Shown here: in pieces, positions 5,032 through 36,575 of the stretch
Layout: every line of letters starts with the position of its first letter
Numbering within the stretch: the first letter of the stretch is position 1
Assembly (NCBI RefSeq): GCF_001427785.1
Contig: NZ_LMHM01000012.1
Location: 359,783 to 404,751 of the forward strand
Length of the DNA: 44,969 nucleotides
DNA from: Lysobacter sp. Root690
Lineage (GTDB): Bacteria; Pseudomonadota; Gammaproteobacteria; Xanthomonadales; Xanthomonadaceae
Reading direction: 5' to 3'
The notes under the pieces: model-generated
The model's database searches: none
What the model saw: only the letters and a program-made list of their open reading frames with translations
What the model was told of the DNA's origin: nothing
Position numbers and translations under genes: made by a program

Positions 5032-7191
5032 ATGCGTTGCCTGTTGATCGATAACTACGACTCCTTCACCTGGAACCTCGCCGACCAGATCGGGCGCGCG
5101 TTCGGCCAGGCGCCGACCGTGCTGCGCAACGATGCGTGCGGTTGGGAGCAACTGCGGGCCGACCAGGACTACGACTGCATCGTGGTCTCGCCCGGTCCGG
5201 GCAGCGTCGAGCACGAGGCCGACTTCCACGTCGCGCGCCAGGCGATCGCGCACAGCGCGCTGCCCTTGCTCGGGGTCTGCCTGGGGTTCCAGGGCATCGC
5301 CTACGCCGAAGGCGGCCGCATCGCGCATGCGCCGCAGCCCTATCACGGCCGGGTCTCGCGCCTGCATCACGACGGCAGCGAGCTGTTCGCCGGTTTACCC
5401 GAATCGTTCGACGTGGTCCGCTATCACTCGCTGATCGCGGCGGCGCCGCTGCCGCCCGCGTTGCAGGCGACCGCGCACACCGACGACGGCCTGATCATGG
5501 CCCTGCGCCATCGTCATCGCCCGCAATGGGGCGTGCAGTTCCATCCCGAATCGATCCTGAGCGAACACGGCATCGACCTGATCGCGAATTTCCGCGATCT
5601 GGTGCGGCGGCATCACGGCCGCGCCTTCGTCAGTCTCGCCGCGCCGGTGATACAGCCGCCGCCGGCCGCGCCCATCGCACCGCCGCACGCCTTGCAGCTG
5701 TGGTGCAAGCCCTTGGACGCGAAGCTCGATCCGGAAACCGTGTTCAACGCGCTGTACGCGCGGCAGCGCAACAGCTTCTGGCTCGACAGCCAGGATGCGG
5801 TCGAGGAGCGCGCGGCGTGTTCGTTCATGGGCGCGGTCGACGACGAGGACCTGCTCGCCTACCGCATCGCCGACGACGATGCGTCGCTGTCGACAGGACA
5901 TGCCTTGTTCGATCGCATCGAACGCGAACTCGAGGCGGCCCAGATCGACGAGCCGATGCCGGCCGACGCCGAAAACGCATTGCCGTTCGATTTCCGCGGC
6001 GGCTTCATCGGCTGGCTGGGTTACGAGATGAAGGCGCTGTTCGATGGCGACGGCAATGGCGACAGCGGCAGCAACGCCGGCACGCCGTTGCCCGATGCAC
6101 TGTGGATGCGCGTGCATCGATTCCTCGCCTTCGATCATCGCCGCGGTCGCGCCTGGGCGATCGCGATCGCCGCGCCGCATACCGCGCAGGCGGCCGACGC
6201 GCAGCGCTGGCTCGAGACGATCGCCGCGCAGGCGGCATCGACTCTTGCCCAGCCCGCGCCCGAGCCGGCATCGCCGGCCGCGCCGCTGGATGCGCTCGAA
6301 GTCGACATGGACCTGGGCCACGACGATTACCTGGCCGCGATCGAACACTGCCGCCGCGCCATCGTCGACGGCGAGTCCTACCAGATCTGCCTGACCAATC
6401 ACTTCCGCTTCCGCGCGCAACTCGATCCACTCGCGTTGTACCTGCGTCTGCGTCGCGGCAACGCGGCGCCGTTCGGCGCCTATCTGCGCAGCGGCGAACA
6501 CCACGTGCTGAGCACCTCGCCGGAACGCTTCCTGCGTGTCGACCGTGGCGGCCGCATCCAGACCAAGCCGATCAAGGGCACGATGCGCCGCTCCGACGAC
6601 CCGCGACTCGATGCGCAGTACGCGCGGCATCTGGCCGAGTCGGTCAAGGATCGCGCCGAAAACCTGATGATCGTCGACCTGATGCGCAACGATCTCAACC
6701 GGGTCGCGGTGCATGCCACGGTCGAGGTGCCGAAGCTGCGCGAAGTCGAAAGCTATCGCACGGTGCACCAACTGGTCAGCACGGTCGAGGCGCAGTTGCG
6801 GCCCGATCGCAGCCTGATCGACCTGCTGCGCGCGACCTTCCCCGGCGGCTCGATCAGCGGCGCGCCCAAGCGCCGCACCATGCAGATCATCGATCGGCTC
6901 GAACGCAGCGCGCGCGGCGTCTATTGCGGTTCGATCGGTTATCTGGGCTACAACCGCGTCGCCGATCTCAACATCGGCATCCGCACCTTGTCCTACGACG
7001 GCGACAGCGTCGCGTTCGGCGCCGGCGGCGCGATCACCTGGCTGTCCGACCCGCAGGCCGAGTTCCAGGAAGTGCTGCTCAAGGCCGAAGCGGTGCTGCG
7101 GCCGCTGTGGGGCTTTCTGGCTCGGCCCGATGCCGGCTTCGCCTACGAGCTCGATGGCGAGCGTTTGCGGCTGCATCGGGTCGCGCGCTGA
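5032..7191 (+). CDS. pabAB: Fused aminodeoxychorismate synthase (PabA-PabB)
   Basis: 719 residues. Makes 4-amino-4-deoxychorismate from chorismate and glutamine, the first committed step to p-aminobenzoate and folate. The N-terminal glutamine amidotransferase (1-195) has NYDSFTWN, nucleophile C83 in GVCLGF, and H171/E173 in QFHPES. The C-terminal chorismate-binding half (about 330-710) contains TKPIKGTMRR; K515 in PIKGT is the PabB-type lysine nucleophile, where anthranilate synthase has Ala, so this is PabB and not TrpE. FPGGSISGAPKRR and FGAGGAITW complete the site. Fused PabAB enzymes are known in actinomycete antibiotic clusters and in other bacteria. It sits between the phosphopantetheinyl transferase and the peptide/YcaO pair, all on the same strand. 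The ATG at 5032 directly precedes the conserved LLIDNYDSF. Confidence 0.93.
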   Translation: MRCLLIDNYDSFTWNLADQIGRAFGQAPTVLRNDACGWEQLRADQDYDCIVVSPGPGSVEHEADFHVARQAIAHSALPLLGVCLGFQGIAYAEGGRIAHAPQPYHGRVSRLHHDGSELFAGLPESFDVVRYHSLIAAAPLPPALQATAHTDDGLIMALRHRHRPQWGVQFHPESILSEHGIDLIANFRDLVRRHHGRAFVSLAAPVIQPPPAAPIAPPHALQLWCKPLDAKLDPETVFNALYARQRNSFWLDSQDAVEERAACSFMGAVDDEDLLAYRIADDDASLSTGHALFDRIERELEAAQIDEPMPADAENALPFDFRGGFIGWLGYEMKALFDGDGNGDSGSNAGTPLPDALWMRVHRFLAFDHRRGRAWAIAIAAPHTAQAADAQRWLETIAAQAASTLAQPAPEPASPAAPLDALEVDMDLGHDDYLAAIEHCRRAIVDGESYQICLTNHFRFRAQLDPLALYLRLRRGNAAPFGAYLRSGEHHVLSTSPERFLRVDRGGRIQTKPIKGTMRRSDDPRLDAQYARHLAESVKDRAENLMIVDLMRNDLNRVAVHATVEVPKLREVESYRTVHQLVSTVEAQLRPDRSLIDLLRATFPGGSISGAPKRRTMQIIDRLERSARGVYCGSIGYLGYNRVADLNIGIRTLSYDGDSVAFGAGGAITWLSDPQAEFQEVLLKAEAVLRPLWGFLARPDAGFAYELDGERLRLHRVAR

Positions 7192-7341
7192 TCGGCGCAA
7201 TGGCGGCGCCGGCCGGATTCACAATCGCCGATTCAGCCAGCTTCCGGCCTTCATGCAATCGCAATTCGGCGCGGTCTGCATCGCCCACGCGCATGCCGGT
7301 GTGATCGCGGTTCCACACACGACAGGTCGCCGAATTCGCGA

Positions 7342-7371
7342 TTGACACCGTTCTTGTGCCATGGGTATAGA
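7342..7371 (+). promoter_or_regulatory. Sigma70-like promoter for the peptide/YcaO pair
   Basis: A perfect -35 TTGACA (7342-7347), 18-base spacer and -10 TATAGA (7366-7371), in an otherwise very GC-rich region. It would give a leader of about 85 bases before the peptide ATG at 7462. This makes the peptide and ycaO separately transcribed from pabAB. Confidence 0.7.
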
Positions 7372-7461
7372 CAACAGGCAGCCGACATGGAAGTCGCGTG
7401 GTTTCCGGCTTCGGCGTCGCTGCATCCACGCCATCGGCGACATCACCTGAAGAGGGACACC

Positions 7462-7599
7462 ATGAAAAAGGCGATCGATATCCCCGTGTTCAAGCCGCGC
7501 CCGCTCATCGAAGACGCCAGCAAGGTCATCTTCGAGCAGCAGATCAAGGTCGAGCTGACCGCCAAGGAAAAATCCTTCCTGGACCAGTACGCGAAGTAA
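7462..7599 (+). CDS. 45-residue peptide, candidate RiPP precursor next to YcaO
   Basis: Charged 45-residue peptide with no signal sequence, beginning MKKAIDIPVFKPRPLIEDAS and ending KEKSFLDQYAK. The Shine-Dalgarno AGAGGGA lies 6 bases before the ATG and a near-consensus promoter lies upstream, so it is very probably expressed. It has no Cys, only Ser20, Ser38 and Thr33, so it is not a usual azole/azoline substrate. The first half is rich in Pro (8, 12, 14) and the second half could form an amphipathic helix. The next gene, 89 bases on, encodes a stand-alone YcaO, a family that modifies ribosomal peptides. I infer a precursor peptide; it could instead be a small regulatory or partner protein for the YcaO enzyme. 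I do not recognise its family. Confidence 0.72.
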   Translation: MKKAIDIPVFKPRPLIEDASKVIFEQQIKVELTAKEKSFLDQYAK

Positions 7600-7621
7600 G
7601 CCGGCGACGGTTTGCTGTCGG

Positions 7622-7654
7622 GCGCGCGGCACGGACTTGTTCGTGCCGCCGCGC
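7622..7654 (+). promoter_or_regulatory. Hairpin between the peptide gene and ycaO
   Basis: Inner stem GGCACGGA (7628-7635) with TTCGTGCC (7640-7647), loop CTTG and one G-U pair, extended outward by two pairs and, past a one-base bulge, four more. There is no T run. Between a small peptide gene and its enzyme such a hairpin could protect the upstream message or attenuate read-through; this is inference. Confidence 0.45.
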
Positions 7655-7688
7655 TACGCGCAAGCCCGGTCGAGCAAGGAGCGACGCC

Positions 7689-8948
7689 ATGATTCCACTG
7701 GAACGCGAACGATCGCTGGCCGACGCCGATGCGGTGATCCGCGGCTACGTGCGCGATCAGGGCTGGCGGATGCAGATCGAGGTGCTCGGCGAGGGCATCG
7801 CTTCGACCGTGTGCACCTTGTACGACGCCGACGGTGTCGCCATCAGCAACGGCTTCGGCAAGGGCGAGGCCGCCGCCTCGCTGACCGGCGCGATGTATGA
7901 AGCGGTCGAGCACTACTACACGCGCAAGCCGCCGGCCGACGAACCCATCGCGCTGGTGCCTTCGCAACAATTCGCCCAGGACCCACGTTACGCCGGCCTG
8001 CCGTTCGTGGCCGCGTTCGAGGCCAATCCGCAACAACAGCTGGCCTGCCGCGCTTATCGCCGCCTCGACGAGCACGGCCCTGGCGAGGACAACGTGCCGG
8101 TGCCGTTGTTCATGACCTACCCGGCGTATCTGCACAATCTGGTCGAGGGCGACGACTTCGATTACACCAGCGCGATCCGCTTCAGCTCCAACAGCGGCGT
8201 GGCGATCGGCGCCAGCCTGGAGGAAGCCGCGGTCCACGCGATCGGCGAACTGGTCGAGCGCGATGCGTGGTCGCTGTTCCTGATCGCGCATTACCTGGGC
8301 GATCCGACCCGCCTGGGCGTGATCGTCGATCCGCAGTCGCTGCCCGACGAGGTCGCGCGCATCCACCGCGCGGTGTGCGGGCAACTCGATCGCGAGGTGT
8401 GGCTGATCGATGTGACCACCGACCTGCAGTTCCCGGCCTTCATCGCCACCACCGCCGACATCCTCGCCGACGAGGAAACGTTTCCCTGCGGCTACGGCGC
8501 GTCGCTGTACGCCGCGCATGCCGCGACGCGCGCGTTGACCGAACTGGTGCAGTGCATCGACATCAAGTCGCGCACGCCGAAGATGCGCGAGTACAGCCGG
8601 CTCGCGCTGGATACTTTGAGCGAATACCGCAAGCTGCGCGATTGCGCCTATTTCCAGGTCCGCGCCGACCGGCTGGAACGGGTCGACTGGGCCCATCCCG
8701 CGCGCGCGCCGATGCCGCCCAAAGCGATGCTAGCCGCCATGATCGCGCATCTGCGTCGGCATGGCATCGGCGTGTACTACGCGATCAACCAGCACGCGCC
8801 GGGCGCGTTCTGCATCGTCAGCTGCGTGTCGTTCGAACTCGAACGCTTCTTCATGGTGAGTTCGGGCATCGCGATGGGCCCGGGCCGGCGCGGCATGGAC
8901 CTGCTGGAAGGCCGTCTGCGGGTGCCGGCGTTGGCGCCATCGGCTTGA
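7689..8948 (+). CDS. Stand-alone YcaO-domain enzyme
   Basis: 419 residues. YcaO enzymes use ATP to activate backbone amides, forming azolines, thioamides or amidines in RiPPs; E. coli YcaO assists ribosomal protein S12 methylthiolation. Visible YcaO signatures are GFGKGEAAASLTGAMYEAVE (55-74), SSNSGVAIGASLEEA (166-180) and ELVERDAWS (187-195), which carry the conserved ATP/Mg-binding acidic residues. The C-terminus reads VPALAPSA, only a loose version of the PxPxP tail of azoline-forming members. No fused or adjacent E1-like (ocin-ThiF) or TfuA partner is seen, so the chemistry is undetermined. AAGGAG about 8 bases upstream fixes the ATG at 7689. It follows the 45-residue peptide gene and a hairpin; nothing downstream belongs to the unit, since the next gene is on the opposite strand. 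Confidence 0.9.
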   Translation: MIPLERERSLADADAVIRGYVRDQGWRMQIEVLGEGIASTVCTLYDADGVAISNGFGKGEAAASLTGAMYEAVEHYYTRKPPADEPIALVPSQQFAQDPRYAGLPFVAAFEANPQQQLACRAYRRLDEHGPGEDNVPVPLFMTYPAYLHNLVEGDDFDYTSAIRFSSNSGVAIGASLEEAAVHAIGELVERDAWSLFLIAHYLGDPTRLGVIVDPQSLPDEVARIHRAVCGQLDREVWLIDVTTDLQFPAFIATTADILADEETFPCGYGASLYAAHAATRALTELVQCIDIKSRTPKMREYSRLALDTLSEYRKLRDCAYFQVRADRLERVDWAHPARAPMPPKAMLAAMIAHLRRHGIGVYYAINQHAPGAFCIVSCVSFELERFFMVSSGIAMGPGRRGMDLLEGRLRVPALAPSA

Positions 8949-23613: not shown

Positions 23614-24918
23614 TCACACCATCGACGGATTGCGCCGGGTCTGTTCGACCGCCTCTTGCTGCGCGCCGTTGCGCTGCGCTTGTTCGGCCTGCTGCACCGA
23701 TTGCTGCGAACTCACCGCCAGCGGTTGCCGCTGGGTTTCCAGATCGACCGAGGCGCGCAACGCCGCCGGATCGTTGGGTGACTGGCCCTGCACCGCGAAC
23801 AAGGTGCCGTTGTTACCGCGTGCGACGTGGTTGATCTCGTGCAGGCCTTGCGCGCCGGCGCTGGCGGTCAGGCTGGCGACGGCGCGATGGTCCAGGCCGG
23901 CGAGCGCCGGGCCGCCGCGATCGATCGCCGCATAGGTCTGGCCCAGCAGCGGGCTGTCGCTGATCAGCGGCGCACCCTGCACGTGACCGTTGTGCGAGAA
24001 CAGGTCGTTCCAACCCTCGCGCACGCGGCGGATGCCGTCCTGCACGCCCTGCGAAGCGCCGGTGATGCCGGCGCGCGCGGCGCCGATGTCGCCGCGAAAC
24101 TTGTCGATCATCGGATCGAACTGCTGGGCGCGGTCGAGATTGGCCTGGGTCATCAGCGGCGGCGTGCCCGGGCCGCCGGCGAACGGCGCGATGTCGTGCG
24201 CGGCCAGGCCGCGACTGGCGACCACGCCGACCGGGTTGCGCAGATCGCCGCCGATGAAATCCGGCCAGAACGATTGCCTGCGGTTGTTCGCATAGCCGGC
24301 ATCGCGCAGCGCGTCGACGTCTTCCTGCGTCGCATACACTTTGGTCTGACCATATTGCGGGCTGGCCGAGCTGACCGTGTCGCTGGCGCGTACGTGATTG
24401 ATCATGCGGTCGTTGTCGCCGGCCGGGATGCCCATGTTCAGGCCGGCCGCGCCGTACGAGTTGAAGGTCTCGCCGTGCACGCCCTCGGCCTGGAACCGGT
24501 GCGCGGAAATCTGCGCCAGGGTGCCGCCGAGCGAATGGCCGGTGACCGCGACCGGCGGCTGCGGGCGGCCGGTGCGTTCGCCTTGCTCGCGCGCGATGTC
24601 GATCGCGCGCTGGGTCAGCGCGATCGCGTCGGGCGCCTGATTGTTGGCGCCGTTGATCACCATGCCGCCGTCGGTGCGAATCACGTCGCGGACGAATTCG
24701 CCGACCCCGTTGCTCGGCTCGGTGCCACGATGGGCAACGATAATCTCGCCCGAATCCACGCGTTGGTAGACCGTGCCCTGATAGCCGTTCTCGCGATTGT
24801 TGGCGGTGGCGAGCACGCGATAGTCGACGCCGTTGACCGGGAAGGACACCGTGGGATCGGCGCGGCGATCGTTGTAGGCGTCCTGGCTGAGCGCTGCATA
24901 GTCCTGGCTGCTGGGCAT
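23614..24918 (-). CDS. Lipase-fold effector with C-terminal XVIPCD tag (X-Tfe)
   Basis: 434 residues. The N-terminal half is a class-3-lipase-like alpha/beta hydrolase: IIVAHRGTEPSNG (59-71) is the oxyanion strand, S129 in VTGHSLGGTLAQ the nucleophile, D180 (RASDTVS) and H241 (LAAHDIAP) the likely acid and base. The C-terminal 110 residues match the XVIPCD recruitment domain: SPLLGQTYAAI, LAGLDHRAVASL, GLHEINHV (358-365), LFAVQGQSPNDPAALRASVD (373-392), then the Gln-rich tail. XVIPCD directs antibacterial effectors to the VirD4 coupling protein of the Xanthomonadales bacteria-killing type IV secretion system. No signal peptide, as expected. Its ATG overlaps the stop of the upstream periplasmic protein by one base, so immunity and toxin are translationally coupled. 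Predicted phospholipase acting in the victim's periplasm; lipid specificity unknown. Confidence 0.88.
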   Translation of the reverse strand: MPSSQDYAALSQDAYNDRRADPTVSFPVNGVDYRVLATANNRENGYQGTVYQRVDSGEIIVAHRGTEPSNGVGEFVRDVIRTDGGMVINGANNQAPDAIALTQRAIDIAREQGERTGRPQPPVAVTGHSLGGTLAQISAHRFQAEGVHGETFNSYGAAGLNMGIPAGDNDRMINHVRASDTVSSASPQYGQTKVYATQEDVDALRDAGYANNRRQSFWPDFIGGDLRNPVGVVASRGLAAHDIAPFAGGPGTPPLMTQANLDRAQQFDPMIDKFRGDIGAARAGITGASQGVQDGIRRVREGWNDLFSHNGHVQGAPLISDSPLLGQTYAAIDRGGPALAGLDHRAVASLTASAGAQGLHEINHVARGNNGTLFAVQGQSPNDPAALRASVDLETQRQPLAVSSQQSVQQAEQAQRNGAQQEAVEQTRRNPSMV

Positions 24919-25568
24919 CACGGCACTTCCTTGTGGGCGTTCAGTACCAAGGTGAACTGCGGACCGGCGCTGGCCTGATAGAAATCGGCCGCGGTTTCGC
25001 CGTACACGTAATCCATCGAGCGCGGTTTCTGCGCGAGGTCGCGCGCCAGGTAGTACTGGACCGTTTCGCCGCCCGCGATCAATCGGTCGGCCTTGAGGCC
25101 GCCGACGAAATGCGTGCTGGGCGAATGGAAATGCACCGTCGCCGTGGTCAGTTCCCAGCGGCATACTCCGAGCCCGTAATAGTCTTCGTCGAGCAGCGCG
25201 TCGACATGCACGATCGCGACATAGCGGCCGTCGTCGTCGCGCTTGAGGTTCAGCGGCAGGCTGTGGCGCGGCGCCAGGCGCACGCCGCCGATCGCCTTGC
25301 CGTAATCGACCGGCACGCATTCGACATTGGCGACCTGGAAGTCGGCGGTGGCGGTGACCTGAGTCAGCGCCTGCGGCAGATCGTCGAAATGAAAACTCAG
25401 GACATGGCCGTCGCGCGCATGTGGGTTGAGTTTGACCACCGGCGCGGCGACCGGCGTGGGTGCGGTGAACAGGCTGGGCGCCTGCGGTGGGTTCGCGCTC
25501 GCGGCGCTGTGCATACTCATGATGGCGATCATCCCTAATGCGGCAGACAGGCGGCTATGAGCTTCCAT
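24918..25568 (-). CDS. Periplasmic protein, probable immunity partner (X-Tfi)
   Basis: 216 residues with an N-terminal signal peptide (hydrophobic stretch through MHSAASA, about residue 25). The mature part is beta-rich with two Cys (VECVPVD and GVCRWEL) and ends LVLNAHKEVP. It shares no obvious family that I recognise. Function is inferred from position: it is directly upstream of the XVIPCD lipase gene with a TGATG stop/start overlap, and immunity proteins of this effector class are periplasmic proteins encoded next to the toxin. The Shine-Dalgarno at the chosen ATG is weak; an internal start at residue 13 (MIAIMSMHS) would still leave a signal peptide. Confidence 0.78.
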   Translation of the reverse strand: MEAHSRLSAALGMIAIMSMHSAASANPPQAPSLFTAPTPVAAPVVKLNPHARDGHVLSFHFDDLPQALTQVTATADFQVANVECVPVDYGKAIGGVRLAPRHSLPLNLKRDDDGRYVAIVHVDALLDEDYYGLGVCRWELTTATVHFHSPSTHFVGGLKADRLIAGGETVQYYLARDLAQKPRSMDYVYGETAADFYQASAGPQFTLVLNAHKEVP

Positions 25569-29754: not shown

Positions 29755-30069
29755 GAGGCGCGGCCCGTGGGGTGCTCTCTGATACGACGAAGCAGGCCAC
29801 CGCGGATCGACAAACCTTCGCGCCGGGCCCAATACCCGCGGTCCTGCGCAGCGATGGGAGCTTTACCGGGCCGGCGCCGCGAACCGGGCGGACATCGAGG
29901 TCCCGCACGCTCTCCAACCCGGCCCCCGCGGATTTGTATCGCAATGTATCCGCCGCCGCGACAGCCACCTTTGCAGACAAATCCCTGGGTCGGCTGACAC
30001 CGGGGCGATACCCCGCGACCTTGAAATGGCGTCACCGGAACGCATGGTCCGCCTCTTCAAGGAATCCCG
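29755..30069. other. 315-bp divergent intergenic region
   Basis: No gene seen. It separates the MFS gene (minus) from the start of the copper-RiPP operon (plus) and holds the TGTATC direct repeat described at 29935-29950. No confident sigma70 -35/-10 pair could be assigned. Confidence 0.5.
29935..29950 (+). promoter_or_regulatory. TGTATC direct repeat, candidate OmpR-type regulator site
   Basis: TGTATC-GCAA-TGTATC: two identical hexamers spaced 10 bp centre to centre, about 120 bases upstream of the first gene of the operon. OmpR-family regulators bind tandem half-sites one helical turn apart, and this operon ends with an OmpR-type regulator gene. Autoregulation is inference. Confidence 0.45.
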
Positions 30070-30744
30070 ATGTCTGTCGCCTCAACCCCCGCAGCGCCCC
30101 TGATGTCCCGCGTCGACGGCGTCGCGCCGTGGCTCGCCCCGCTCGGTCTGCGCGTCCTGCTGGCCTGGGAATTCTTCGAAGCCGGCCGCGAGAAGCTGCA
30201 GGGCGACAACTGGTTCGCCGACCTCGGCGACAAGTTTCCGCTGCCGTTCTCGCTGCTCGGTGCCGATCTCAACTGGACCCTGGCGACGTGGACGGAACTG
30301 GCCGGGGCCGTGGCCCTGCTGCTCGGCCTGGGCACGCGCTACGTCGCCGCCGCGCTGTGGGTGCTGACGGTGGTCGCGATCTACGCGGTGCATTGGCCGT
30401 CGGACTGGTCGAGCCTGGCCGAGCTGTGGCAGGGCTATGCGATCAGCAACGAGGGCCACGGCAACTACAAGCTGCCGCTGATCTATCTGGCGATGCTGCT
30501 GCCGCTGATGCTCGGCGGCGGTGGTCGCCTGAGCCTGGACCGGCTGATTGCATCGCGCCGCGCGCCGATCGCCGCCGCATCGGCCGATGCGCGCGCCTGG
30601 GGCGTGGTGTTGCTCGGTATCGGCGCGACCGTGTCGCTGCTGCTGCCGTGGGTCGGCGCGACCCTCGCGTTCGCCGGCATCGCGCTGACGATCAAGCGGC
30701 GCGGCCGCGACGCCGTGAACCGATTGTCCTCCGCCGTCGCCTGA
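30070..30744 (+). CDS. DoxX-like membrane protein, HvfX type
   Basis: 224 residues with four to six hydrophobic helices. [29 protein letters not shown] (about 20-48) and the conserved second half ([23 protein letters not shown]) are DoxX family features. DoxX-like proteins recur in gene clusters encoding MNIO-modified copper-binding peptides, where they are thought to be membrane maturation or redox factors. AAGGAA precedes the ATG. It is first in the run leading to the EGKCG precursor gene, which starts 91 bases downstream. I rely on context for the specific role. Confidence 0.85.
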
Positions 30745-30835: not shown

Positions 30836-31393
30836 ATGTCCGTCAACAACCCTCGTTCCGCTTCGCGTTCCACCACCGCCGGCATGCTTGGCGTCGCCCT
30901 GGCCGGTCTGGTCCTCGGCCAATCCGCCTTCGCCATGCAGCCGCTCGCCCAGGGCTACATGGTCGCCGCCAGCCACGCCGCCGGCGAAGGCAAGTGTGGC
31001 GAAGGCAAGTGCGGTGCCGACAAGGCCAAGGGCGCGAACGCCAAGACCGCCGGTAAGACCTCCGCCGGCAAGACCGCGGAAGGCAAGTGCGGCGAGGGTA
31101 AGTGCGGCGCCGACGCCAAGGCCGCGGGCAAGACCGCCGAAGGCAAATGCGGCGAAGGCAAGTGCGGCGACGCCTCGTTCGCCAAGACCGATCGCAGCGG
31201 CGACGGCCGGGTTTCGCGCGCCGAATTCCTCGCGGTCGCGCCGACCCGCGCCGCCGACTTCCCGAAGCTCGACGTCGACGGCGACGGTTTCATCTCCGAG
31301 AAGGAGGCCTACGACTACCTCAAGGCCACCTACGCGGCCAACGGCAAGCCGATGCCGGCCGGCCTGTTCGCGAAGTTCCCCGGCGGCCAGTAA
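30836..31393 (+). CDS. hvfA: EGKCG-repeat RiPP precursor fused to EF-hand pair (HvfA/bufferin-like)
   Basis: 185 residues. Signal peptide 1-33 (LVLGQSAFA). Residues 51-111 hold six EGKCG motifs in three back-to-back pairs (51-60, 82-91, 102-111) separated by Ala/Lys/Gly linkers, giving six Cys (54, 59, 85, 90, 105, 110). EGKCG is the Cys motif that HvfB/BufB MNIO enzymes convert to copper-binding heterocycles. The C-terminal part has two canonical 12-residue EF-hand loops, D119-x-S-x-D-G ... E130 and D146-x-D-x-D-G ... E157, both with complete Ca ligands. GGAGA precedes the ATG. The next gene is the MNIO. Known HvfA-type precursors are small low-complexity peptides; the EF-hand module is an addition that may add Ca sensing or act as a recognition domain. 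After export it would sequester copper in the periplasm. Confidence 0.88.
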
Positions 31394-31455: not shown

Positions 31456-32307
31456 ATGCGCACTATTCCCTCACTGTCCGCCGGGCTCGGCCTGCGCCGC
31501 GGTCTGCTGCCGTCGCTGCGGGCGATGGACGACGCCGCGGTGGATTTCCTCGAAGTCGCGCCGGACAACTGGATCGGCGTCGGCGGCCAATTCGGCGACG
31601 CGCTGAGCGAATTGTCCGCGCGGTTCCCGCTGAGCTGTCACGGCCTGTCGCTGTCGCTGGGCGGCAGCGCGCCGCTCGACATGGACCTGCTGCGCGCCAC
31701 GCGCCAGTTCAATGATCGCCACGGCATTGGCCTGTACAGCGAACACCTGAGCTACTGCGCCGACGACGGCCATCTGTACGACCTGATGCCGATCCCGTTT
31801 ACCGACGAAGCGATCGGCCACGTTGCCGCGCGCATCCGTCAGGTGCAGGACGTGCTCGGTCGGCGCATCGCGGTGGAGAACGTGTCGTACTATGCCGCGC
31901 CGTACCAGGCGCTGGCCGAGATCGACTTCATCCGCGCCGTGCTCGACGAAGCCGATTGCGACCTGCTGCTCGACGTCAACAACCTCTACGTCAACGCGAT
32001 CAACCACGGCTACGACGCGCAGGCCTTCCTGGCCCGCCTGCCCGGCGAGCGCATCGCCTCGTACCACATCGCCGGTCACTTCGATGAAGCGGCCGACCTC
32101 AAGATCGACACCCACGGCGCGCCGGTCAAGGCCGATGTGTGGTCGCTGCTGGACGGCGCCTACCGCCGCTTCGGCGTGCGTCCGACCTTGCTCGAACGCG
32201 ATTTCAATTTCCCGCCGCTGCCCGAACTGCTGGCCGAAACCCAGCGCATCCGCGCGATGCAGACCGCGCACGTCGGCATCGCGCAACCGGAGCCGGCTCA
32301 TGCATGA
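31456..32307 (+). CDS. hvfB: DUF692/MNIO peptide-modifying iron oxidase (HvfB/BufB)
   Basis: 283 residues, a TIM-barrel multinuclear non-haem iron oxidative enzyme. Family signatures in order: [83 protein letters not shown] and [10 protein letters not shown]. The repeated His, Glu, Asp and Asn in these motifs are the iron ligands. Related enzymes convert Cys in EGKCG motifs to oxazolone/thioamide or thiooxazole groups. The substrate here is almost certainly the adjacent precursor. AAGGGA precedes the ATG, and the stop overlaps the start of the DUF2063 partner by eight bases. Cytoplasmic, acting before export of the precursor. Confidence 0.93.
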
Positions 32308-33067
32308 CACTCTGCGCGAACAGCAATACGTCCTCGCACGTCATCTGCGCGACCCAGCCCGCCATCCGTCGCCGCCCGGCATCGAAGCGCGGCGCATGCG
32401 GGTGTACCGCGAGTTGTTCCAGGGCTCGATCGACAGCCTGTTGGGCGGCGGTTTTCCGGTGATCCGGCAAACCCTCGGCGCCGCGGCCTGGACCTCGCTG
32501 GTGCAGGCGTTCTACGCCCGCCATCGCAGCCGCACGCCGCTGTTCACCCGCATCGCCGGCGAGTTCGTCGACTTCATCGAAACCCATGCGGACGATCTGC
32601 AGCTGCCGCCGTGGCTGCCCGAACTCGCGCACTACGAATGGGTGGAACAAGCCCTGCTGATCAGCGATGCGCAAGCGCCGGCGCACGACCCGGACGGCGA
32701 TCTGCTCGACGGCCGACCGCTGCTGTCGCCGCTGGCGATGCCGCTGGCGTATCGCTGGCCGGTGCTGGAGATCGGTCCTACCGACATTCCGAAAGCACCG
32801 CCGCCGCACGTCACTACCTTGCTCGTGCATCGCGATCGCGACCACCAGGTGCGGTTCGCCCGCATCGCGCCGCTGGCCTACCACCTGCTGACCTCGCTGC
32901 AAGTCAACGCGTATCGCGGTCGCGAACATCTCGCGGCGTTGTCCGCGCAAACCGGCGGCGACGCCGACGAACTTCATACCCATGGCCTGAGCCTGCTGCG
33001 GCAACTGCGCGAGCAGGGCGTGGTCCTGGGTACCCATCTTGCAACGGAGTCATGCGATGAACGCTAA
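32300..33067 (+). CDS. hvfC: DUF2063 partner protein of the MNIO (HvfC/BufC)
   Basis: 255 residues. The N-terminal helical domain ([15 protein letters not shown] ... [29 protein letters not shown]) is the DUF2063 signature. The C-terminal half resembles a winged-helix RiPP recognition module. Such proteins form a complex with the MNIO and present the precursor's leader. The gene overlaps the MNIO gene by 8 bases and the following gene by 11, so it is translationally coupled on both sides. GGAG lies before the ATG. Confidence 0.9.
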
Positions 33068-33728
33068 ATCCCGAATCCCCAGCGGCTGGTCGTTGTTCTG
33101 GCTGATCGGCCTGTCGATCCTGGCGATGTCGGCGCTGATCCTGGCGCTGAATCCCGATACCACCGAAGCGGTGCGTTCGGTGATCCGCGCCACCGCGCGC
33201 ACTTCGTTCGCCCTGTTCCTGCTCGCGTTCGTGGCGTCCTCGCTGGCCGCGCTGGTGCCGAACGATTTCACCCGCGGCCTGATGCGCGAACGCCGCTACA
33301 TCGGCCTGTCGTTCGCGTTCTCGCACATCGTCCATCTGCTGGCGATCGTCGCCTACGGTGTGCTCAACCCGCAGTTCTGGCCCGGCCGCAATGCGGTGAC
33401 CAATGCGCCGGGAACGCTGGGTTACGTGTTCATCGCTTTGCTCGCGCTGACCTCGTTCCGCTTCGCCTCGCGCCACATGACCGCGGCAGCGTGGAAGCGC
33501 CTGCACACCGCCGGCATCTGGGTGATCGCAGCGATCTTCGGCTACTCGTTCTTCAAGCGCATTCCGAGCATGAGCGTGCTGTACGCGATTCCGTTCTCGA
33601 TTCTGTGCGCCGCCGTCGCGGTGCGCCTGGTCGGCAAGTGGGCGCAGGCCAACAAGCGCAAACAGGCGCGGACCCGCTCGCTGGACCGCGCCTCGTCCTT
33701 CCCCAACGCACTGGAGCCCACGTCATGA
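33057..33728 (+). CDS. Ferric-reductase-like transmembrane haem protein
   Basis: 223 residues with six predicted helices, the ferric reductase/MsrQ-like transmembrane fold. Candidate haem-ligand His occur in paired positions: FSHIVHLLAIVAYG (H at about 85 and 88) and SRHMTAAAWKRLHTAGIW (about 141 and 150). No flavin or NAD domain is attached, so electrons must come from a partner or from quinol. GGAG precedes the ATG; the start overlaps the end of hvfC by 11 bases and the stop overlaps the thioredoxin-like gene by four. Its position in a copper-peptide operon suggests redox control of copper or of the modified peptide in the periplasm, which is inference. Confidence 0.85.
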   Translation: MNAKSRIPSGWSLFWLIGLSILAMSALILALNPDTTEAVRSVIRATARTSFALFLLAFVASSLAALVPNDFTRGLMRERRYIGLSFAFSHIVHLLAIVAYGVLNPQFWPGRNAVTNAPGTLGYVFIALLALTSFRFASRHMTAAAWKRLHTAGIWVIAAIFGYSFFKRIPSMSVLYAIPFSILCAAVAVRLVGKWAQANKRKQARTRSLDRASSFPNALEPTS

Positions 33729-34306
33729 CGTCGTTGCCCGCAACCGCCGCTATCGCACGCGTCCCCGATTCGACCGGTCGCGCCTTGTGGAAGTCGATGC
33801 TCGCCGGCATGGCGCTGTGCCTGAGCGCCGCGGCCTGCACCCCGGCCGCGCATGCGGACGCGGCGCGCGCCGTGGCCGCGCCGGAATTCGCCGGAATCGA
33901 GCGCTGGTTCAACACCCCGGCGCTGAGCCTGGCCGGCCTGCGCGGCAAGGTGGTGCTGGTGGAGTTCTGGACCTACTCGTGCATCAACTGCCTGCACGTC
34001 GCGCCGCATGTGAAGCAGTGGCACGAGCGCTACCGCGACCAGGGACTGGTGGTGATCGGCGTGCATACGCCGGAGTACGACGAGGAACACAGCGCGGGCA
34101 ATCTGCAAGCCGCGATCAAGCGCCTGGGCATCGACTACCCGGTCGCGCAGGACAACGCCTACGCCACGTGGAACGCCTACGGCAATCGCTTCTGGCCGGC
34201 GCTGTACCTGATCGATCGCGACGGCCGCATCGTCTATCGCCACTACGGCGAAGGCGAGTACGAGGTCACCGACGCGCGGATCCGCGCGCTGCTGGCGCAG
34301 CGCTGA
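33725..34306 (+). CDS. TlpA/DipZ-like thioredoxin-fold protein, exported
   Basis: 193 residues. A hydrophobic segment (SMLAGMALCLSAAAC, about 24-38) serves as a signal peptide, possibly with a weak lipobox at C38. The thioredoxin fold follows, with active-site C86-I-N-C89 in FWTYSCINCLHVAPHV, the CINC variant typical of DipZ-type periplasmic thiol-disulfide proteins, then VVIGVHTPEYDEE and FWPALYLIDRDGRIVYRHYGEG with the cis-Pro. An ATGA overlap couples it to the haem membrane protein. In this operon it probably keeps the precursor's Cys reduced or handles copper-induced thiol oxidation; this is inference. Confidence 0.88.
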   Translation: MTSLPATAAIARVPDSTGRALWKSMLAGMALCLSAAACTPAAHADAARAVAAPEFAGIERWFNTPALSLAGLRGKVVLVEFWTYSCINCLHVAPHVKQWHERYRDQGLVVIGVHTPEYDEEHSAGNLQAAIKRLGIDYPVAQDNAYATWNAYGNRFWPALYLIDRDGRIVYRHYGEGEYEVTDARIRALLAQR

Positions 34307-34434: not shown

Positions 34435-35175
34435 ATGGACCACGTAGATCACATCCTGGTCGTCGACGACGACCGCGAGATCCGCCAGATGGTCGCCGAC
34501 TATCTGCACAAGAACGGCCTGCGCGCCACCGTTGCCGCGGACGGCCGCGAGATGCGCGCGCTGCTCGACACCCACGCGGTGGACCTGATCGTGCTCGACT
34601 TGATGATGCCCGGCGAAGACGGCCTGACCCTGTGCCGCAACCTGCGCGCCGGCAAGCACCGCGCGATCCCGGTGGTGATGCTGACCGCGCGCGACGACCA
34701 GACCGATCGCATCATCGGCCTGGAGATGGGCGCCGATGATTACGTCACCAAGCCGTTCGCCGCGCGCGAACTGCTGGCGCGGATCAAGGCGGTGATCCGG
34801 CGCACGCGCATGCTGCCGCCGAACCTGCAGGTCACCCAGGCCAGCCGCACGATCGCGTTCGGACGCTGGCGCCTGGACACCACCGCGCGCCATCTGCTCG
34901 ATCCCGACGACACCGTGGTCGCACTCAGCGGCGCCGAGTTCCGCCTGCTGCACGTGTTTCTCGATCACGCCAACCGCGTGCTGACCCGCGACCAACTGCT
35001 CAACCTGACCCAGGGCCGCGACGCCGAACATTTCGAACGCTCCATCGACCTGCTGGTGAGCCGCCTGCGCCAGCGCCTGCAGGACGATGCGCGCGAGCAG
35101 AGCTACATCAAGACCGTGCGCAGCGAAGGCTATGTGTTCAGCATGCCGGTGAGCCTGCTGGGGGACGGCGAATGA
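34435..35175 (+). CDS. OmpR-family response regulator
   Basis: 246 residues. Receiver domain with D11-D13 acidic cluster, D55 in VLDLMMPGEDG and K106 in TKPFAA. The C-terminal winged helix has ALSGAEFRLLHVFLDHANRVLTRDQLL and IDLLVSRLRQRL ... IKTVRSEGYVF, the OmpR/PhoB DNA-binding signature. The kinase gene starts inside its stop codon (ATGA at 35172). 128 bases separate it from the thioredoxin-like gene, on the same strand, so it may be read from the operon or from its own promoter. It most likely controls the adjacent copper-peptide genes; the TGTATC direct repeat at 29935 is a candidate target. Confidence 0.94.
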   Translation: MDHVDHILVVDDDREIRQMVADYLHKNGLRATVAADGREMRALLDTHAVDLIVLDLMMPGEDGLTLCRNLRAGKHRAIPVVMLTARDDQTDRIIGLEMGADDYVTKPFAARELLARIKAVIRRTRMLPPNLQVTQASRTIAFGRWRLDTTARHLLDPDDTVVALSGAEFRLLHVFLDHANRVLTRDQLLNLTQGRDAEHFERSIDLLVSRLRQRLQDDAREQSYIKTVRSEGYVFSMPVSLLGDGE

Positions 35176-36575
35176 CCACGAACACGAACACGAGCACGCA
35201 TGCGACTGCGGCGCCGGCGCCGACCGTACCCGCCGGCTCGCGCTGGCTGCCGCGCACCTTGGCCTCGCGCCTGTCGCTGATCCTGCTGAGCGGTCTGTTG
35301 ATCGCACACGCGCTGTCGTTCGGCCTGCTGTTCTATGAGCGCTACACGGCGGCGACTTCGATGCTGATGAGCAATCTGGAGCAGGACGTGGTGGTCGCGG
35401 TGAACCTGCTCGATCGGCTGCCGCCGCAGGAACGCGAACGCTGGCTGCCGCTGCTGCGGCGGCGCACGTTTCATTACATGCTGGACAACGGCGCGACGGG
35501 CGATGCCGCGGCAAGCGCGCAGAACGAATCACCGCTCCGCGGCACCTCGCGCGACATGGCCGAGATGATCGCCAGCGCCCTGGGCCCGCGTTACCCGACC
35601 CGCGCCACCGCGGTGCCCGGCGACGGCGAGCACTTCCAGGTGCGGTTGAAATTGAGCGACGGCACCGCGATGGTCATCGACGTGCGGCCGTCGGTGATGC
35701 CGCTGGCGAAGTGGCTGCCGTACGTGCTCGCGATCCAGCTGGCGCTGCTGCTGCTCTGCACCTGGGCCGCGGTGCGGCTGGCTACCCGGCCGTTGGGCCG
35801 GCTGGCGAAAGCCGCCGAAACCCTGCACCCGGCCGGCGAGGGCGAGCGCCTGCCGGTCGGCGGTCCGACCGAAGTGGCGCAGGCGATCACCGCGTTCAAC
35901 GCCATGCAGGACCGCATCGCCCACTACATGCGCGAACGCCTGCAGATTCTCGCGGCGATCTCGCACGATCTGCAGACGCCGATCACCCGCATGCAGTTGC
36001 GCGCCGAGGCGATGGACGAATCGAGCGAGCGCGACAAGATGTTCGACGACCTCGGCCAGATGCAGCATCTGGTGCGCGAAGGCATCGCGTATGCGCGCAG
36101 CGCGCACGGCGCGTCGGAGTCGGCGGTGCGGATCGACCTCAATGCTTTCCTCGACAGCCTGGTCTGCGATTACCTCGACACCGACCGGCCGGTGACCTTC
36201 GCCGGCCGCGTCGACGGCCCGGTAATCACGCGTCCGCATGCGTTGCGTCGCATCGTCGGCAATCTGATCGACAACGCGATCCACTACGCCGGCGCGGCCG
36301 AACTCGAGCTCGATCACGACCCGGCCGGCGGCGTGCGCATCCAGGTGCGCGATCGCGGCCCCGGCATTCCCGAGGACGAACTGGGCAAGGTGATGCAGCC
36401 GTTCTACCGGCTCGAAGCCTCGCGCAATCGCAGCACCGGCGGCACCGGCCTGGGCCTGGCGATCGCCCAGCAACTGGCCGAATCGATCGGCGCCACGCTG
36501 ACGTTGCGCAATCGCGACGGCGGTGGCCTGGAAGCGATCCTGCGCATCGCGGGCCCGGGCGCCGCGGCGCGGTAG
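35172..36575 (+). CDS. HAMP-containing sensor histidine kinase
   Basis: 467 residues. Two membrane helices (LSLILLSGLLIAHALSFGLLF, about 35-55; LPYVLAIQLALLLLCTWAAV, about 180-200) flank a periplasmic sensor of about 120 residues. HAMP follows, then HisKA with H265 in ISHDLQTPITRMQLR, and HATPase_c with NLIDNAIHYA, RDRGPGIPEDELGKVMQPFYR and GGTGLGLAIAQQLAESIGA. Overlaps the regulator gene by four bases. The periplasmic part lacks the Met/His-rich pattern of CusS-type copper sensors, so whether it senses copper directly is open. Confidence 0.94.
   Translation: MTTNTNTSTHATAAPAPTVPAGSRWLPRTLASRLSLILLSGLLIAHALSFGLLFYERYTAATSMLMSNLEQDVVVAVNLLDRLPPQERERWLPLLRRRTFHYMLDNGATGDAAASAQNESPLRGTSRDMAEMIASALGPRYPTRATAVPGDGEHFQVRLKLSDGTAMVIDVRPSVMPLAKWLPYVLAIQLALLLLCTWAAVRLATRPLGRLAKAAETLHPAGEGERLPVGGPTEVAQAITAFNAMQDRIAHYMRERLQILAAISHDLQTPITRMQLRAEAMDESSERDKMFDDLGQMQHLVREGIAYARSAHGASESAVRIDLNAFLDSLVCDYLDTDRPVTFAGRVDGPVITRPHALRRIVGNLIDNAIHYAGAAELELDHDPAGGVRIQVRDRGPGIPEDELGKVMQPFYRLEASRNRSTGGTGLGLAIAQQLAESIGATLTLRNRDGGGLEAILRIAGPGAAAR

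What the first reader, a model, noticed from the sequence alone, without database searches (positions are those of the whole stretch)
30836..31393. EGKCG RiPP precursor fused to a paired EF-hand domain
Six EGKCG motifs in three doublets precede two intact Ca-binding loops on one chain with one signal peptide. EGKCG cysteines are the established MNIO target for copper-binding heterocycles. The EF-hand pair implies a peptide that could bind both copper and calcium, or a folded recognition module behind the modified core. The core lies between the signal peptide and a folded domain rather than at the C-terminus.
Basis: partly seen in the sequence, partly recalled or inferred. Interest (0 to 1): 0.85.

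Follow-up and report, generated by a model that had tools for sequence, protein, structure and literature searches.

The report
Copper-peptide precursor with calcium-binding tail
A Lysobacter-like bacterium encodes an exported, probably copper-binding peptide joined to a pair of calcium-binding loops; this type of fusion is already described, but here it sits behind a conserved regulator site that links it to the EfhP/BfmR system of Pseudomonas.

Summary
In detail: ORF 30836-31393 has a signal-like N-terminus, six EGKCG motifs in three doublets and two intact EF loops, beside hvfX, hvfB and hvfC. The architecture is not new: Leprevost et al. 2025 describe such chimaeras and cite EfhP as an example. 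Added here: (1) both modules are under purifying selection (nonsynonymous/synonymous ratio EGKCG 0, EF 0.11, linker plus tail 0.72). (2) Relatives carry the EF pair between EGKCG clusters, not only at the C-terminus. (3) A tandem TGTATC-N4-TGTATC site matching the published BfmR motif precedes the operon. All 18 EF-type operons found in the genus are within 1 mismatch; 0 of 21 EF-less EGKCG operons come within 2. EF-type genes outside this clade lack it. (4) In 23 of 23 P. fluorescens-type genomes the gene is detached from hvfBC, which persists elsewhere. Likeliest role: a BfmR-controlled periplasmic copper-binding RiPP whose EF pair folds with calcium after export. Modification, metal binding and structure are untested; structure prediction never ran (14 tries).

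The parts
29935..29950 (-). Tandem repeat TGTATC-N4-TGTATC, BfmR-type operator 119 bp before hvfX (published-motif match at 29935-29948, - strand)
   Evidence: 1 mismatch to TACAA-N3-GATACA; only match of the full tandem in the window; TACA-N4-GATACA occurs twice in the 6.3 Mb genome, reversed-pattern control 0. At up to 2 mismatches the window count (3) is not above shuffles (mean 1.49; 15 of 100 reach 3)
29976..30000 (+). Conserved downstream promoter block [GT]ACAAA ... GA[TC]AC
   Evidence: Seen in 22 operator regions that I chose from the 64; role inferred
30070..30744 (+). hvfX (DoxX family)
   Evidence: NF050144 148.2 bits over cut-off 80; PF07681
30836..31393 (+). Precursor: signal peptide, six EGKCG, EF-hand pair
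30836..30934 (+). Signal peptide, residues 1-33 (cut after AFA, by eye)
   Evidence: sequence reading; no predictor run
30944..30958 (+). LAQGY element shared with EF-less precursors; candidate recognition element (inferred)
30986..31015 (+). [10 protein letters not shown] doublet 1
31079..31108 (+). [10 protein letters not shown] doublet 2
31139..31168 (+). [10 protein letters not shown] doublet 3, abutting the EF pair; both Cys and their Gly invariant in the 43 rows of alignment A2; last Cys 9 residues before the first Ca ligand
31190..31225 (+). EF loop 1 [12 protein letters not shown]
31271..31306 (+). EF loop 2 [12 protein letters not shown]
31456..32307 (+). hvfB, MNIO peptide maturase
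   Evidence: NF003818 421.6 bits over cut-off 360; PF05114 339.2 bits
32300..33067 (+). hvfC, DUF2063/NGO1945_C partner protein
   Evidence: NF050145 275.4 bits over cut-off 142
33057..33728 (+). Ferric-reductase-like membrane protein (weak MsrQ similarity, below that model's cut-off)
   Evidence: PF01794 28.9 bits over 28; recurs at several EF-type loci
33725..34306 (+). TlpA/ResA-like thioredoxin-fold protein
   Evidence: PF08534, PF00578; recurs at several EF-type loci
34435..35175 (+). OmpR-family response regulator, probable BfmR orthologue
   Evidence: 75% identical to the regulator at L062; 377 bits against 157 for the next hit in the genome; nearest curated model is OmpR, below its cut-off
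35172..36575 (+). Sensor histidine kinase, probable BfmS orthologue
   Evidence: similar kinases beside the regulator at other EF-type loci; nearest curated model EnvZ, below its cut-off

Best explanation
This is the precursor of an EGKCG-class (oxazolin/captophorin) RiPP of the known EF-hand chimaera subtype, related to EfhP. A BfmRS-type two-component system encoded 3 kb downstream switches the operon on through a tandem TGTATC site in front of hvfX. HvfB with HvfC oxidises the EGKCG cysteines in the cytoplasm to 5-thiooxazoles, and the Sec system exports the protein. In the calcium-poor cytoplasm the EF pair would be calcium-free and loosely folded, compatible with both the enzyme and Sec export. 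In the calcium-rich periplasm it would bind calcium and fold, leaving a copper-binding tail at a fixed short distance from a calcium-loaded domain that retains, positions or signals. Shown: genes, motifs, selection on both modules, the conserved operator, and regulator orthology to another EF-type locus. Inferred: modification here, copper binding, calcium-dependent folding, export order, control by the regulator, the downstream role.
For: Gene set and curated families. EGKCG is modified by HvfBC/FonBC relatives, and a two-repeat peptide was modified where a one-repeat peptide was not (PMC12668002 section 11); the doublet abutting the EF pair keeps both Cys and their Gly in all 43 rows of A2. 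Last Cys to first Ca ligand is 9 residues in 91 of 100 unique EF-type precursors while doublet number varies; 98 of 100 have no cysteine outside CG after residue 25 (picked with a permissive loop pattern, so loop counts are biased upwards). Substitution ratios EGKCG 0, EF 0.11, linker plus tail 0.72. Operator: exact in 16 of 18 EF-type operons of the genus, all 18 within 1 mismatch of the full tandem, against 0 of 21 EF-less operons within 2; 1000 draws of letter-permuted patterns hit at most 1 of 18. In P. aeruginosa pa4107(efhP)-pa4106-pa4105 is among the top three BfmR-bound promoters and efhP the most activated gene (PMC8025907 passages). EfhP binds Ca2+ with Kd 13.7 uM, changes conformation, and is predicted periplasmic (PMC9132961 passages).
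Against: No mass, metal or structure data for this protein; the AlphaFold job was never accepted (14 tries). The HvfA equivalog and EF-pair models fall below their curated cut-offs, as do the nearest models for the regulator and kinase, OmpR and EnvZ. EfhP and BfmR sequences were not compared directly; that link rests on gene order, the published motif and the papers. The operator marks a clade, not the EF fusion as such: 0 of 11 loci with an internal EF pair outside the genus have it, and three EF-less Pseudomonas precursors do. Even with 1 mismatch allowed, 5 of 56 of L033-L088 and all 23 of L089-L111 lack it. EfhP work ties the protein to calcium and iron rather than copper (passages).
Confidence: 0.6

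Rival explanations
1. Calcium sensor first: the EF pair is the working part (EfhP-like signalling) and the modified EGKCG stretch is a redox or metal input that tunes it, not a copper store.
For: EfhP is studied as a calcium sensor acting on gene expression (passages). In the P. fluorescens-type loci the core is a single doublet while the EF pair stays.
Against: EGKCG codons are even more constrained than the EF part; hvfBC is kept in all 23 such genomes; the window and its nearest relatives carry six to eight motifs.
Confidence: 0.25
2. EF pair as a passive solubility or retention tag: calcium-loaded EF only keeps an aggregation-prone copper peptide soluble or bound to envelope components.
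For: A copper-supplemented EGKCG peptide sample precipitated, and the authors speculate that copper-bound EGKCG peptides aggregate (PMC12668002 passage). The EF position differs between lineages, as expected of a tag.
Against: Fixed 9-residue Cys-to-ligand spacing in 91 of 100 and a conserved tail at residues 168-177 suggest more than a tag.
Confidence: 0.2
3. Uncoupled fusion: the EGKCG part is cut off after export and the EF part is a leftover.
For: The PMC12668002 authors leave open whether mature EGKCG products are cut by a host protease.
Against: Purifying selection on the EF part (ratio 0.11) and EF-type precursors found in 18 of 20 genomes of the genus.
Confidence: 0.07

Closest known systems
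[quoted passage not shown] 2025, PMC12452194; passages and section 15 seen)
   Same: Signal/TM segment, EGKCG domain, two C-terminal EF hands, MNIO/DUF2063/DoxX neighbours
   Different: The passages seen place the EF pair at the C-terminus, and the text holds no occurrence of BfmR, two-component or response regulator; here relatives show internal EF pairs, and a BfmR-type operator is documented
EfhP (PA4107) of P. aeruginosa (PMC9132961, PMC11559002, PMC8025907; passages seen)
   Same: Two EF hands, reported EGKCG repeats, periplasmic prediction, three-gene operon, BfmR control
   Different: EfhP is reported with four EGKCG; the window protein has six and its operon begins with hvfX; EfhP sequence not compared here
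HvfA/oxazolin of Haemophilus and FonA/fontiphorin (PMC13419390 passages; PMC12668002 passages and section 11)
   Same: EGKCG repeats modified by an HvfB-type MNIO with its partner; for HvfA also signal peptide and HvfX
   Different: No EF hands are mentioned in the passages seen; HvfA has its motifs towards the C-terminus
Own-genome paralogue operon at G000:C11 (L001/L172)
   Same: EGKCG precursor with its own hvfB and hvfC
   Different: No EF pair, no BfmR-type site, no hvfX or regulator match in the 18 kb held

Membership tests
EGKCG (oxazolin/captophorin) RiPP precursors | Repeated EGKCG core | tested here: met
   Six motifs; NF050137 47.4 bits over 19.5
EGKCG (oxazolin/captophorin) RiPP precursors | HvfB-type MNIO and HvfC-type partner encoded beside it | tested here: met
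   NF003818 and NF050145 over cut-off
EGKCG (oxazolin/captophorin) RiPP precursors | HvfA equivalog model NF050188 reaches its curated cut-off | tested here: not met
   55.2 bits against 95; so not filed as an HvfA equivalog, only under the wider EGKCG class
EGKCG (oxazolin/captophorin) RiPP precursors | Cys converted to 5-thiooxazole; copper bound | not testable with these tools
   needs co-expression and mass spectrometry
[quoted passage not shown]
   loops 119-130 and 146-157
[quoted passage not shown]
   doublets start at 51, 82 and 102: spacings 31 and 20
[quoted passage not shown]
   hydrophobic stretch and AFA|M read by eye; no predictor
EfhP orthologue | Direct sequence match to EfhP | not tested
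   EfhP sequence was not fetched; link rests on papers and gene order
BfmR regulon | BfmR motif in the operon promoter | tested here: met
BfmR regulon | BfmR binds and activates this promoter | not testable with these tools
   needs footprinting or a deletion

The most novel reading that the evidence does not exclude
EfhP-type proteins, this one included, are a calcium-gated branch of thiooxazole metallophores under one conserved BfmRS promoter. The EF pair works as a post-export folding switch that couples envelope calcium to copper (or iron) handling by the neighbouring modified doublet, and in the P. fluorescens group the same pathway runs in trans after its cluster split.
Probability: 0.3. 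Interest if true: 0.75.

Novelty: new member of a known kind. Interest (0 to 1): 0.5.

Why it matters
It joins two lines of work that the papers seen here treat largely apart: EfhP as a calcium sensor under BfmRS, and EGKCG peptides as MNIO-made copper binders. If EfhP-type proteins are modified in their own hosts, any calcium-binding or signalling result obtained with protein made without hvfBC would describe the unmodified form, and the question why a calcium sensor carries EGKCG becomes directly testable. The window operon, with operator, hvfX, precursor, hvfB, hvfC and the regulator pair within 6.6 kb, is a compact system for it.

Tried and rejected
AlphaFold of the precursor on alignment A2 was asked for 14 times and never accepted; no structural claim is made. 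The second TACA-N4-GATACA site in the genome (L183) was looked at and set aside: no gene start of interest follows it and its sequence is not the full tandem (sequence and ORFs). Idea that the EF pair is the recognition module for HvfBC: set aside, because EF-less precursors are served by the same enzyme families and mostly share the GY segment. Idea of a single EF fusion: on the HvfB tree (quick search, SH-aLRT support) EF-type rows as one clade are rejected (AU p 2e-58) and C-terminal types too (p 3e-9), but precursors can move or lose EF independently of hvfB, so gains and losses cannot be told apart. Idea that P. fluorescens-type genes are orphans without an enzyme: set aside, hvfB- and hvfC-type genes are present elsewhere in 23 of 23. 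The 1-mismatch motif hits at L115/L175, L118 and L121/L176 have their mismatch in the conserved half-sites and were treated as probable chance. The PDB sequence search gave only weak EF-hand hits (best E 0.0039).

Full report
What is there. ORF 30836-31393 encodes 185 residues: a hydrophobic signal ending AFA|M (by eye), LAQGY, three [10 protein letters not shown] doublets (51-60, 82-91, 102-111) in an Ala/Lys/Gly-rich linker, then two EF loops (119-130, 146-157) and a short tail. NCBIfam places hvfX before it and hvfB and hvfC after it, all over their curated cut-offs; the HvfA equivalog model is not reached. A ferric-reductase-like gene, a TlpA-like gene, a response regulator and a histidine kinase follow on the same strand.

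Prior art. Leprevost et al. 2025 (PMC12452194; [quoted passage not shown] a 2024 paper notes four EGKCG in EfhP (PMC11559002 passage). EGKCG cysteines become 5-thiooxazoles in oxazolin and fontiphorin, and a two-repeat peptide was modified where a one-repeat peptide was not (PMC12668002 passages and section 11).

Relatives. A scan of named genomes confirmed 222 stretches and kept 79 loci under its cap (its patterns included an EF loop, so EF types are favoured). The number of motifs before the EF pair runs from two to eight. Within the genus 18 of 20 genomes have an EF-type precursor among the matches: 11 with a C-terminal EF pair and 7 with EGKCG doublets on both sides of it. Internal EF pairs were also read at 4 loci of other genera of the family and at 7 loci of five other families (L115, L116, L117, L119, L120, L121, L125). 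Over 100 unique EF-type precursors, loop positions 1 and 12 are D and E in both loops, position 5 is D in 100 and 96, and the last Cys before the pair lies 9 residues before the first ligand in 91 (a permissive loop pattern chose them, so these loop figures are biased upwards). In ten gene pairs nonsynonymous-to-synonymous ratios are 0 for EGKCG, 0.11 for the EF part, 0.72 for linkers plus tail and 0.32 for the region before the core (pairs share members).

Tree. In an HvfB tree of 89 rows, taken from 159 extracted (quick search, SH-aLRT support only), the EF label needs 8 changes; one clade of EF types is rejected (AU p 2e-58), and so is one clade of C-terminal types (p 3e-9). The EF-less operon of the own genome falls with the other EF-less operons of the genus. 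The window lies in a mostly C-terminal-EF group of 42 rows, with internal-EF types of other family members (L031, L024, L032) branching just outside it.

Regulation. In P. aeruginosa the pa4107(efhP)-pa4106-pa4105 promoter is among the top three BfmR-bound regions and efhP is the most activated gene; the motif is TACAA-N3-GATACA (PMC8025907 passages). The window has one site with 1 mismatch, at 29935-29948, before hvfX; at up to 2 mismatches the window's count of 3 is not above shuffles (mean 1.49, 15 of 100 reach 3). The site reads as a tandem TGTATC-N4-TGTATC. TACA-N4-GATACA occurs twice in the own genome with 0 reversed controls, and 41 times in 20 genomes of the genus against 17 reversed controls. 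Of 18 EF-type operons of the genus 16 carry it exactly and all 18 come within 1 mismatch of the full tandem; of 21 EF-less EGKCG operons from the same 20 genomes (one genome gave two) 0 carry it and none comes within 2 (Fisher p 4e-9, relatedness ignored; 1000 draws of permuted patterns hit at most 1 of 18). Among the named loci, 51 of 56 of L033-L088 have a site with at most 1 mismatch to the published motif and 0 of 23 of L089-L111 do. It marks a clade, not the EF fusion as such: 0 of 11 loci with internal EF pairs outside the genus carry TACA-N4-GATACA, and three EF-less Pseudomonas precursors (L164, L165, L169) do. Around the sites the sequence diverges while a second block about 26 bp downstream recurs in the 22 regions shown. 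The window regulator is the best match in its genome to the regulator beside the P. hunanensis chimaera L062, 377 against 157 bits. The order at L062 (precursor, hvfB, hvfC, then hvfX, kinase and regulator on the other strand) resembles the pa4107-4105, pa4103-4104, bfmRS numbering in the paper. BfmR itself was not compared, and the nearest curated models (OmpR, EnvZ) are below their cut-offs.

Split clusters. L089-L111, all titled Pseudomonas, keep one doublet and the EF pair but show no hvfB or hvfC match in the fetched flanks. All 23 genomes hold hvfB- and hvfC-type genes elsewhere with no EGKCG precursor beside them: 19 loci of about 7 kb with 0 EG[KQ]CG in six frames, and 4 loci with 1.5 kb flanks where none was found. 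The regulator gene (77-79% identical) is beside hvfBC in 13 of those 19, and a BfmR-type site lies about 200 bp upstream of the hvfB match in 9 of 19. In three other genomes (those of L083, L085, L088) a separate hvfB operon has an EF-less EGKCG precursor, and both genes carry BfmR-type sites.

Reading. The strongest reading is a BfmR-controlled, exported EGKCG RiPP whose EF pair is kept by selection and sits at a set distance from one doublet. With EfhP's reported Ca2+ Kd of 13.7 uM, calcium-free EF in the cytoplasm and calcium-bound EF in the periplasm is a reasonable inference, and would explain how a would-be folded domain passes HvfBC and Sec. Copper binding, modification and any signalling by this protein remain untested.

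Literature gaps. MNIO with EF-hand gave one paper. EfhP with RiPP gave five, of which only PMC12452194 looks relevant from the listing. A search for papers holding at least two of BfmR, DUF692, MNIO, bufferin, HvfA, oxazolin found 15 and listed 11, none of those with BfmR. PMC12452194 has no BfmR, and PMC11559002 has no PA4106 or PA4105 but does mention BfmRS control of efhP. Subscription papers are mostly outside this library.

Noticed in passing
L172 (own genome C11), 7769 onward: A second hvf-type operon with an EF-less EGKCG precursor lies downstream of an ABC-transporter ATPase gene and a PhoU gene, with no BfmR-type site.
   Followed up: partly
window 23617-25320 (-): 568-aa protein with a C-terminal X-Tfes XVIPCD domain (39.1 bits over 24.9); recalled as a domain of Xanthomonadales type IV secretion effectors.
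   Followed up: no
L067:4926-5378 and 7162-7710: Lysobacter prati has two EF-type EGKCG precursor genes within 3 kb.
   Followed up: no
L142-L152: In these Pseudomonas genomes a more distant MNIO (41-44% identical to window HvfB) has a small Cys-rich ORF upstream, and in several a piece of a P-type-ATPase-like protein lies before that (the ATPase likeness is by eye).
   Followed up: no
window 29976-30000; L036, L062 and other EF-type loci: Second conserved promoter block [GT]ACAAA followed by GA[TC]AC downstream of the tandem operator; function unknown.
   Followed up: partly
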